Source of the DNA: Acidobacteriaceae bacterium
Lineage (GTDB): Bacteria; Acidobacteriota; Terriglobia; Terriglobales; Acidobacteriaceae
Length of the DNA: 42,790 nt
Direction of reading: 5' to 3'
NCBI GenBank assembly: GCA_003132325.1
Contig: PKXK01000116.1
Location: forward strand, 35,552-78,341
Notes under the pieces: generated by a model
Databases searched by the model: none
What the model was told of the DNA's origin: nothing
The model's input: the letters and a program-made list of their open reading frames with translations, nothing else
Shown: positions 37,886-39,600 of the stretch, piece after piece
How positions within the stretch are numbered: the first letter of the stretch is position 1
Layout: every line of letters begins with the position of its first letter
Program-made: the position numbers and the translations under genes

Positions 37886-38195
37886 TGGTGCGGGCGGAGG
37901 GACTTGAACCCTCACGGGCTTGCGCCCAACGGATTTTCTTACCAACTGCGGCTTTCGCCGTCGCTGCTTGGCGTTTGTGGTCTGGACTATCCCTTCACCG
38001 TGGCCGAAGCTTTAGGTGCTGCCCGTCTAGTCTCTACACCTTCCCATTGGGACCGATTCGATCCATCCGGGCTTGGCTCGGGATTGCCATTTGACAGGTT
38101 TCCCCGAATTTGAGCAGTTCTGCATCGCTGGTTTCCCAGCGAGCACTCAAGTTTTCGTTTAAGTCCGGTGCGTCTGCCGATTTCGCCACGCCCGC
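37886..38195 (-). tRNA. tRNA-Leu(UAA) interrupted by a group I intron; exons 38161-38195 and 37886-37937, CCA encoded
   Basis: 87-nt spliced product GCGGGCGTGGCGAAATCGGCAGACGCACCGGACTT/AAAATCCGTTGGGCGCAAGCCCGTGAGGGTTCAAGTCCCTCCGCCCGCACCA folds as tRNA-Leu. Confidence 0.93.
37938..38160 (-). ncRNA. group I intron (IC3-like), 223 nt, no ORF
   Basis: P1 ACUU/GAGU with U.G at the splice site, P2 hairpin CGCUGG-GAAA-CCAGCG, AAUUCGGGGAAACC, AGACUAGACGGGCAGCACC, AAGGGAUAGUCCAGACC core blocks, terminal G. Confidence 0.9.
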
Positions 38196-38218
38196 TTAGG
38201 ACCTCTTCAGTATAGCCG

Positions 38219-39442
38219 TTAATCCTCTATATCGGGTTCCCTCGCGGTCTTCGCCTTCTTCGCCGGTTTCTTCTTGCGGATGTTGATCGCGGCGGCGTCA
38301 AGGCTCGTCTTGATGTGCGACGCGTAATATTTTTCGATCATCTCGACGCTGGTGCGGCAGTTCTTCGCGATCTGATAAATGTCGGCGCCCTCCATGAGGC
38401 GCAGGCAGATGTAAGTGTGGCGCAGGCTGTAAGCCGTGCGCGGCAGGCCCTCGCGGTCCTTCTTGAGATTTTCTTCTGCGAGGATCGTGTTAAAGAGTTC
38501 GCGGTGCGTCTTCGGGAAGATCGGGTCGGTCGGATGCGGCTCCTTCCCTTCCGCTTTCTTCTTCGCGTCGTTCCGTTCTTTCAGACGCTCGAACGGCCGC
38601 ACGGCGCCGGTGGTGCTCTTGCAATACCCGACGCCGCGCTTGCCGCGCACCTCGATTTCAAGAATCGTTTCCTGGCTGCCGTCGTCCTCGACAATCGTGA
38701 CGTCGCGAAACTGAAGGCGGCCCGCTTCGTCCGGCCGCAGCCCGGTATTCGCCATGAAGAGCACGTAGTCGTGAAGTTGCTCTGACTCCCATTTGTAGCG
38801 CGCGTTGAGAGGTGTCTTCGCGCGTTTCCTGGTCGCTTCATACAGCTGTTTGTATTCGTCAGGGGAGAACCAGGCGCGGTGAGAAATCTTGGCGGAGGCC
38901 CTGTATGGTTCCGAGAGATCCGGCAGTCGGTCGAGCCATCCGTGGCGGATAGCCGTTTTCAAGGTCTGCCGCAGGGTCACCATCTCCTGGTGCATGGTAT
39001 TGCGCGCGGGCGGTTTGCCGCGCTTCGCCGTCGTGGTTTCGAGACGGTGCATCCGGTATTCCTGCACGTTGCCAGCCGTGATTTCCGAGAGGCCCATTTT
39101 TCCGAAGAAGGGCACCAGGTGCAGTTGAGAGCGGCGGTGCTGGCCCTCGACGTAGACCTTGTTGCGCTCGCCTTGCGTGATGACGTCGTACTCGCGCAGG
39201 TACTGTTCGGAGGCCTCGCTGAACGTCTTTTCGGTTTTAATCTCGCCGGCGCGGAGCTTGCCGCGCATTTGCAGATACCAGTCCTCGGCGATCTCCTTGG
39301 CTTTGGAGAGGCTCTCTTCCTTGGTGCTGGTGCGGCGATTCTTGGAAGCTAGATAGGTGGCGCACTGCCAGCAGGAGCTATTCTCGCGTTTATAGAGGTG
39401 GACTTTGCCGCCCAGGATCGTATGTTTTTCTGTCAAGCGCAA
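38219..39442 (-). CDS. int: tyrosine recombinase/integrase
   Basis: MANTGLRPDEAGRL (R), YSLRHTYICLRL (HxxR-like), IEKYYASHIKT (Y); TTG start. Confidence 0.9.
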   Translation of the reverse strand: MRLTEKHTILGGKVHLYKRENSSCWQCATYLASKNRRTSTKEESLSKAKEIAEDWYLQMRGKLRAGEIKTEKTFSEASEQYLREYDVITQGERNKVYVEGQHRRSQLHLVPFFGKMGLSEITAGNVQEYRMHRLETTTAKRGKPPARNTMHQEMVTLRQTLKTAIRHGWLDRLPDLSEPYRASAKISHRAWFSPDEYKQLYEATRKRAKTPLNARYKWESEQLHDYVLFMANTGLRPDEAGRLQFRDVTIVEDDGSQETILEIEVRGKRGVGYCKSTTGAVRPFERLKERNDAKKKAEGKEPHPTDPIFPKTHRELFNTILAEENLKKDREGLPRTAYSLRHTYICLRLMEGADIYQIAKNCRTSVEMIEKYYASHIKTSLDAAAINIRKKKPAKKAKTAREPDIED

Positions 39443-39480
39443 TCGGCCTCCAGAAGGGCGAAACTGTGTAAGCTATGTGC

Positions 39481-39509
39481 AAGATATCGCAACGCGGTCA
39501 CGTAGTCAA
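39481..39509 (-). promoter_or_regulatory. predicted promoter TTGACT-N17-TATCTT for the integrase
   Basis: box spacing. Confidence 0.5.
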
Positions 39510-39561
39510 TATGCCATTGATTTGATTGGTCTTATATGAACTGCCTGATTTTTAAAAGGGT

Positions 39562-39600
39562 TTTTAAGTCCCGTGCGTCTGCCAGTTTCGCCATCCGGGC
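39562..39600 (-). pseudogene. tRNA-Leu(UAA) 5' half ending in the anticodon loop (probable insertion junction)
   Basis: GCCCGGATGGCGAAACTGGCAGACGCACGGGACTTAAAA followed by non-tRNA sequence ACCCTTTTAAAAATCAGG. Confidence 0.85.

What the first reader, a model, noticed from the sequence alone, without database searches (positions are those of the whole stretch)
37886..39600. Integrase plus replacement tRNA cassette: the island breaks host tRNA-Leu(UAA) and brings an intron-disguised copy
Seen: host-side tRNA-Leu(UAA) 5' half (39562-39600) truncated in the anticodon loop; integrase starts about 120 bp inside; an intact intron-bearing tRNA-Leu(UAA) of different sequence begins 24 bp after the integrase stop, on the same strand. 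Known: tyrosine integrases use tRNA anticodon-loop sites and usually restore the gene by carrying the missing half. Inference: this island instead carries a whole replacement tRNA, and because the intron interrupts the anticodon-loop region, the copy would be a poor integrase target, protecting the element from self-integration.
Basis: partly seen in the sequence, partly recalled or inferred. Interest (0 to 1): 0.88.

Follow-up and report, generated by a model that had tools for sequence, protein, structure and literature searches.

The report
Mobile island swaps host tRNA gene
A 63-kb mobile DNA island cuts the only normal copy of an essential bacterial tRNA gene in two and brings its own working copy, whose cutting site is interrupted by a self-splicing intron; dozens of relatives in several phyla do the same, and in some lineages the island appears to be gone while its tRNA has become the host's only copy.

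Summary
Confirmed and extended. The host tRNA-Leu(UAA) 5' half (39562-39600) and its 3' half, found 63.2 kb away on the same contig, join on an 8-bp core (ACTTAAAA) into a perfect tRNA-Leu(UAA). A same-genus relative has the empty site. Neither island end rebuilds the gene, and both carry paired TTACACA-type sites. No other tRNA-Leu(UAA) was found in the genome except the cassette 23 bp after the integrase. Its 223-nt intron is a group I intron, and spliced in silico it gives a canonical tRNA-Leu(UAA).

In the closest integrase relatives (Acidobacteriota, Alphaproteobacteria and others), 33 of 33 readable elements with a broken UAA gene and a classifiable nearby cassette carry the same intron-bearing tRNA-Leu(UAA). 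Elements that break tRNA-Leu(CAA) carry intronless tRNA-Leu(CAA) (11 of 12). Elements that rebuild their target have no nearby cassette. In several Terriglobia genera the intron-bearing copy is the only tRNA-Leu(UAA) and no integrase lies beside it.

The principle is known as 'tRNA-dependent lysogeny' of actinophages (2024). New here: non-phage islands, wide spread, and an intron placed exactly in the integrase core. Shielding from self-integration is well motivated but unproven. New variant of a known kind.

The parts
39562..39600 (-). host tRNA-Leu(UAA) 5' half, truncated in the anticodon loop (int-proximal attachment junction)
   Evidence: joins with C97:11838-11898 (-) into a canonical tRNA-Leu(taa)
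39562..39569 (-). 8-bp common core ACTTAAAA (second copy at C97:11891-11898, outside the window)
39465..39482 (-). paired arm-type motif TTGCACA-N4-TTACACA; the matching pair TTACACA-N5-TTACACA lies 69-81 bp inside the other island end (C97)
38219..39442 (-). tyrosine integrase, 407 aa (PF13102 SAM-like; PF00589 weak)
38161..38195 (-). replacement tRNA-Leu(UAA), 5' exon ending ...GGACTT (U34)
37938..38160 (-). 223-nt group I intron between U34 and A35, ending in G, with P/Q/R/S core and GAGU guide sequence
37886..37937 (-). replacement tRNA-Leu(UAA), 3' exon with encoded CCA
38209..38214 (-). -10-like TATACT just upstream of the replacement tRNA (own promoter, inferred)
1..39561 (.). int-proximal part of the island (whole island C97:11899-75112, 63.2 kb); mobilisation and partition genes plus efflux/oxidoreductase cargo
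2232..4061 (-). ParB-like partition protein of the island
14047..15027 (-). second tyrosine recombinase of the island (PF00589)

Best explanation
This is a mobilisable, plasmid-like island whose tyrosine integrase recombines an 8-bp core in the anticodon loop of the host's single tRNA-Leu(UAA) gene. Its own attachment site carries no tRNA half, so integration splits the gene. The island survives because it carries, just downstream of the integrase, a complete tRNA-Leu(UAA) that takes over UUA decoding. That copy is interrupted by a group I intron exactly inside the core sequence (CTT|AAAA). The intron is removed from the RNA by self-splicing, while in DNA it destroys the integrase target, so the element's own tRNA (and that of the resulting cell) should be a poor site for self-integration, tandem insertion or superinfection. 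Shown here: split gene, empty site, both ends, intron type and position, absence of another copy in this MAG, and family-wide recurrence. Inferred: splicing and function in vivo, essentiality in this host, and the shielding effect of the intron.
For: The two halves join on ACTTAAAA into a perfect tRNA-Leu(UAA). A same-genus genome (G009) has the contiguous empty site, 89% identical across the junction, with an intact tRNA. Paired arm-type motifs lie at both ends. No other UAA copy was found in the MAG, and 17 of 27 host ORFs use UUA. Of the loci from the integrase scan with a readable broken half and a classifiable cassette within 700 bp, 33/33 UAA targets carry the intron-bearing UAA tRNA and 11/12 CAA targets carry an intronless CAA tRNA (Fisher p 1e-9 before correction for kinship). 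The introns sit at the identical position in 33/33 cassettes, all splice in silico to tRNA-Leu(taa), and keep P/Q/R/S, the guide sequence and covariation. Most other UAA-type genomes checked show no ordinary intact UAA copy; apparent far-end copies in Edaphobacter/Granulicella lack the 5' acceptor strand. Elements that rebuild their tRNA have no cassette beside the integrase. A complete Bradyrhizobium genome shows both broken CAA halves 47 kb apart plus a CAA cassette.
Against: The genome is a MAG (93.5% complete), so a second copy cannot be excluded in this one genome. Shielding is not universal: 5 of 25 CAA cassettes keep the target core, and the window's own cassette keeps 7 of 8 core bases on the exon side (ACTTAAAc). 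Once kinship is removed, only four supported contrasts remain and the association is not significant. One element (L103) breaks CAA but carries the UAA cassette. Known tRNA-dependent phages work without an intron. No splicing, aminoacylation or integration assay exists.
Confidence: 0.85

Rival explanations
1. Replacement without selected shielding: the island carries a spare tRNA-Leu(UAA) that happened to come from a lineage with a trnL-type group I intron; the intron is a neutral passenger inherited with the integrase.
For: Cassette and integrase are tightly linked and inherited together; cassettes share a body (GCGGGCG acceptor in 25/33) unlike host tRNAs; some CAA cassettes keep the core; known phages do without a shield (PMC10865867).
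Against: No UAA cassette in the family was seen without an intron, while CAA cassettes change the core in other ways in 17 of 25 cases; splice site, guide and ribozyme core are kept.
Confidence: 0.35
2. Ordinary tRNA integration: the host keeps another functional tRNA-Leu(UAA) and the intron-bearing copy is a dispensable or dead relic.
For: The MAG is incomplete; some elements of the family do rebuild the target (L086, L110), and two of 16 Terriglobia genomes with the intron also keep an ordinary UAA tRNA (G094, G104).
Against: No ordinary copy was found in this genome or in most others with the element; the other border is not rebuilt; splice sites and tRNA body are conserved in 33/33.
Confidence: 0.05
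3. The altered cassette tRNA is an anti-defence tRNA: sequence changes in the anticodon arm evade anticodon nucleases rather than the integrase.
For: Phage tRNAs with anticodon-loop changes that evade nucleases are reported (cited in PMC11476347); CAA cassettes have changed anticodon stems.
Against: The intron is absent from the mature tRNA, whose loop (CUUAAAA) equals the host's, so it cannot evade an anticodon nuclease; the strict pairing with a broken same-type gene is not explained.
Confidence: 0.05

Closest known systems
tRNA-dependent lysogeny of actinobacteriophages (Guerrero-Bustamante & Hatfull 2024, PMC10865867), e.g. Fionnbharth (tRNA-Lys), Gaia (tRNA-Leu-CAA)
   Different: Here mobilisable plasmid-like islands with relaxase and coupling protein, not phages; Acidobacteriota, Alphaproteobacteria and others; integrase and tRNA form a compact module; the UAA copies carry a group I intron inside the core. 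That paper speculated that an unshielded plasmid tRNA may be hit by tandem integration
Group I introns of tRNA-Leu(UAA) in cyanobacteria and plastids
   Same: Same gene and same position (between U34 and A35), group I core (position in cyanobacteria from general knowledge)
   Different: Here the intron-bearing gene travels on integrative elements as a replacement gene; sub-group not tested
Randau & Soll proposal that introns shield archaeal tRNA genes from integrating viruses (reviewed in PMC4090602)
   Same: Intron in the anticodon region disrupts an attB
   Different: There the host protects itself with protein-spliced introns; here the element protects its own copy, with a self-splicing intron
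Ordinary tRNA-targeting islands and ICEs that rebuild the tRNA
   Same: Same kind of integrase and same target class; some family members (L086, L110, L116, L128) do this
   Different: The island in the window carries no half gene and cannot rebuild it

Membership tests
tRNA-dependent integration (tRNA-dependent lysogeny) | tyrosine integrase with a short core inside a host tRNA gene | tested here: met
   8-bp core, arm-type motifs, integrase family
tRNA-dependent integration (tRNA-dependent lysogeny) | host tRNA not rebuilt at either junction | tested here: met
   likewise at far ends in Edaphobacter/Granulicella and Bradyrhizobium
[quoted passage not shown]
   spliced cassette is tRNA-Leu(taa)
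tRNA-dependent integration (tRNA-dependent lysogeny) | the element is a temperate phage | tested here: not met
   relaxase, T4CP, ParA/VirC1, Rep3, ParB; no relative of the integrase in 50,697 phage records
tRNA-dependent integration (tRNA-dependent lysogeny) | element tRNA required for survival of integrants | not testable with these tools
   needs genetics
Group I intron, trnL(UAA) type | P/Q/R/S core, terminal G, U.G at the 5' splice site, insertion after U34 | tested here: met
   Rfam RF00028 over gathering; 30-33 of 33 cassettes have each element
Group I intron, trnL(UAA) type | self-splicing | not testable with these tools
   needs in vitro transcription
Mobilisable integrative element (IME) | relaxase plus coupling protein, integrase, defined ends | tested here: met
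   PF03432 relaxase and PF02534 T4CP on the island, ends
Mobilisable integrative element (IME) | transfer to a new host | not testable with these tools
   only broad distribution of the integrase

The most novel reading that the evidence does not exclude
A broad family of integrative elements has evolved self-immune replacement tRNAs: the element destroys an essential host tRNA gene, substitutes a copy that its integrase cannot use because a self-splicing intron (UAA) or an altered anticodon stem (CAA) breaks the core, thereby makes the cell dependent on the island, and leaves behind domesticated intron-bearing tRNA genes that explain the patchy occurrence of such genes in Acidobacteriota.
Probability: 0.55. 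Interest if true: 0.88.

Novelty: new variant of a known kind. Interest (0 to 1): 0.82.

Why it matters
It gives bacterial group I introns in tRNA genes a plausible purpose (protecting a replacement gene from the element's own integrase) and turns the old idea that tRNA introns block integration into something directly testable. It shows that breaking and replacing an essential tRNA gene is common well beyond actinophages. It also offers a route, visible in intermediate genomes, by which a mobile element's tRNA becomes the host's only copy. Dependence on the island's tRNA should also stabilise the island. Tools that count or annotate tRNAs miss these genes: ARAGORN without introns finds none in the window.

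Tried and rejected
(1) Restoration at the other border: rejected, the 3' half has no 5' half. (2) A first pattern for the 3' half missed it because it assumed a longer T-arm spacer; found by direct scan. (3) 'Intact' UAA copies in Edaphobacter/Granulicella genomes looked like counterexamples but lack the 5' acceptor strand. (4) CAA elements without a nearby cassette looked like exceptions; in seven genomes the cassette was found near the far end, and L086's far end is rebuilt. (5) Breoghania (L127) without a nearby cassette has the intron-bearing copy about 6 kb inside. (6) A half next to an intact UAA tRNA in G070:C120 is unrelated: no integrase there. (7) Phage origin: no hit among phage records and few in viral contigs. 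(8) Literature searches for intron-bearing tRNA-Leu on islands found nothing, but only open-access papers were searched. (9) The kinship-corrected test is too weak to prove shielding.

Full report
WHAT IS THERE. On the minus strand, in reading order: the 5' half of a tRNA-Leu(UAA) (39600..39562) ending at ACTTAAAA; 119 bp; a 407-aa tyrosine integrase (39442..38219); 23 bp; a complete tRNA-Leu(UAA) interrupted by 223 nt (38195..37886). Plain ARAGORN finds no tRNA in the window. With introns allowed it finds one tRNA at this place but shifts the junction and mislabels the anticodon. Spliced at CTT|AAAATCC it is a canonical 87-nt tRNA-Leu(taa). Rfam places the intron in group I (RF00028, 53.6 bits, E 5.7e-11).

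THE OTHER END. The window is G000:C97:35552-78341 of a 305-contig MAG (5.3 Mb, 93.5% complete, 6.65% contamination). Scanning C97 to the left shows the missing 3' half at C97:11838-11898, same strand, with non-tRNA sequence in front of it. The island is thus 63.2 kb. Joining the host flanks at ACTTAAAA gives a perfect tRNA-Leu(UAA). The reconstructed attP shares only those 8 bp with it, so integration must break the gene. Paired TTACACA-type motifs, the layout expected of arm-type integrase sites, lie 69-81 bp inside the left end and 80-91 bp from the core at the right end. In 23 same-genus genomes the joined sequence mostly finds contiguous single tRNA-Leu(UAA) genes; G009 matches 89% across the junction with both flanks and has an intact tRNA there. 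This is the empty site. G020 of the same genus has a broken UAA half beside a 78%-identical integrase fragment at a contig end.

NO OTHER COPY. The Leu tRNAs found in the MAG are UAG, CAG, CAA and GAG; no ordinary UAA gene was found by tRNA model, pattern or DNA search. Seventeen of 27 host ORFs tested use UUA, the codon that only this isoacceptor reads (general knowledge). The MAG is not closed, so absence is strong but not final for this one genome.

WHAT KIND OF ISLAND. It carries a MobA/VirD2 relaxase, a T4SS coupling protein, VirC1/ParA, a Rep3 initiator, ParB, ArdC, a DNA methylase, AbiJ and Schlafen-type proteins, a second tyrosine recombinase, and ABC/outer-membrane efflux, FAD monooxygenase and Rieske cargo. 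It is a mobilisable plasmid-like island, not a phage. No integrase relative exists in the phage collection; a few are on alphaproteobacterial plasmids.

THE FAMILY. The integrase has thousands of relatives. A scan of species-representative genomes found 413; the best 80, plus 3 viral contigs and the window, were examined. Among loci with a readable broken half and a classifiable cassette within 700 bp of the integrase, 33 of 33 UAA targets carry the intron-bearing tRNA-Leu(UAA), 11 CAA targets carry an intronless tRNA-Leu(CAA), and one is discordant (L103; Fisher p 1e-9, not corrected for kinship). Two further UAA cassettes are cut by contig ends (L108, L140). L103 sits deep inside a UAA clade, which suggests recent use of the CAA gene by a UAA element. 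Hosts include Acidobacteriota, Alphaproteobacteria and Planctomycetota.

APPARENT EXCEPTIONS RESOLVED. Edaphobacter and Granulicella genomes seemed to keep an intact UAA gene, but that copy is the far end of the element and lacks the 5' acceptor strand, so ARAGORN rejects it. The 5' flank of the broken gene in Edaphobacter M8US30 is 88% identical to the flank of the intact gene in M8UP30. CAA elements without a nearby cassette have the far-end 3' half, and in seven genomes a complete tRNA-Leu(CAA) near the far end. Breoghania has its intron-bearing copy about 6 kb inside. In the complete Bradyrhizobium CCGUVB4N genome the CAA halves lie 47 kb apart, each bordered by arm-type motifs, with a CAA cassette after the integrase. 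Natural controls: members that rebuild their target (L086 and L110 at the far end; L116, L128-L130, L133, L147, L151, L153 at the near end) have no cassette beside the integrase. L125 and L126 combine an intron cassette with what look like decaying remains of an element-supplied 3' half, suggesting how a rebuilding element could turn into a replacing one.

THE INTRON. In 33 of 33 extracted cassettes the intron (204-271 nt) sits at the identical place, between U34 and A35, ends in G, and splicing gives tRNA-Leu(taa). The guide sequence pairing with the 5' exon is present in 33/33, and P, Q, R and S elements in 30-32 of 33. A consensus fold has 97% of cells paired, with 31 of 85 pairs showing changes on both sides. 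Only 3 of 11 cassette introns tested reach the Rfam gathering score, counting the window's own. Cassettes share a body (acceptor GCGGGCG in 25/33) unlike the host genes they replace. A -10-like hexamer precedes 19 of 33 (shuffled mean 7.8, maximum 16 in 500 shuffles), so they probably have their own promoter.

WHY AN INTRON. The site is the integrase core, so any unshielded copy on the element would itself be a target. The intron removes the right half of the core in DNA and is absent from the RNA. The intronless CAA cassettes point the same way: 17 of 25 differ from their target within the 8-bp core (nine of them by a flipped 31-39 pair, GTCTCAAAAAC), three more change only the next pair, and five are unchanged (L114, L119, L120, and the two Edaphobacter-type G065/G066; read by eye). 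None of the native tRNA-Leu(CAA) genes seen in the genomes has the flipped pair. This is circumstantial. Kinship-corrected contrasts are too few (3 concordant, 0 opposite, 1 without difference), and the window's cassette still keeps 7 of the 8 core bases on the 5' exon side. I hold replacement at about 0.9-0.95 and shielding as the selected role of the intron at about 0.6.

AFTERMATH. In 151 Terriglobia genomes, 16 carry this intron. In several it stands without an integrase within 1.5 kb. In G060 and G116 (one genus), G199 and G172 (another), and G111, no ordinary tRNA-Leu(UAA) was found. G167 and G089 still show the broken UAA half about 200 bp before the cassette with the integrase gone. 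This looks like domestication of the element's tRNA. G094 and G104 keep an ordinary copy as well.

WHAT IS KNOWN. The principle was described in 2024 as tRNA-dependent lysogeny of actinophages (PMC10865867), with a hint of unshielded tandem integration. A similar substitution is noted in Sinorhizobium prophages (PMC11476347). That introns might shield tRNA genes from integrating viruses was proposed for archaea (Randau & Soll, via PMC4090602). I found no report of intron-bearing replacement tRNAs on bacterial islands, within an open-access library only. Hence: new variant of a known kind.

Noticed in passing
L048:1500-1750 (G000:C26): A second group I intron in the same MAG is followed by a tRNA-Ile(CAU)-like 3' half with CCA but no recognisable 5' half: a possible relic of another intron-bearing tRNA.
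   Followed up: partly
L043 (G000:C80) and L044 (G000:C119): Dense arrays of 24 and 9 tRNA genes on two contigs binned with this genome, probably phage or contaminant DNA.
   Followed up: no
L263:7250-7512 (IMGVR_UViG_3300024239_000011, 543 kb): A very large viral contig has the same conserved intron core in a tRNA with a different anticodon loop, not next to an integrase.
   Followed up: no
L119 and L120: Near-identical integrase/tRNA-Leu(CAA) loci in MAGs labelled as different bacteria have arm-type motifs on both sides of an undivided core: a circular or tandem form with an intact attP.
   Followed up: no
L127, L145: The element supplies a tRNA 3' part that looks class I-like (no long variable arm) and does not form a tRNA by ARAGORN; L145's replacement copy was not located.
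   Followed up: partly
L150:7274-7358: A Planctomycetaceae relative carries a tRNA-Leu(UAG)-like cassette with a mismatched anticodon stem after the integrase; its target was not found.
   Followed up: no
L286:1265-1800 (G104:C8): An ordinary tRNA-Leu(UAA) directly followed by a degenerate intron-bearing copy; possible reversion or failed domestication.
   Followed up: no
L289 and L297 (G089:C6:41854-45007): Two intron-bearing tRNA-Leu(UAA) copies 3 kb apart behind one broken half, integrase missing.
   Followed up: partly
window 42114-42542 (-): Small PIN/VapC-like protein on the host side of the island border (by eye, not searched).
   Followed up: no
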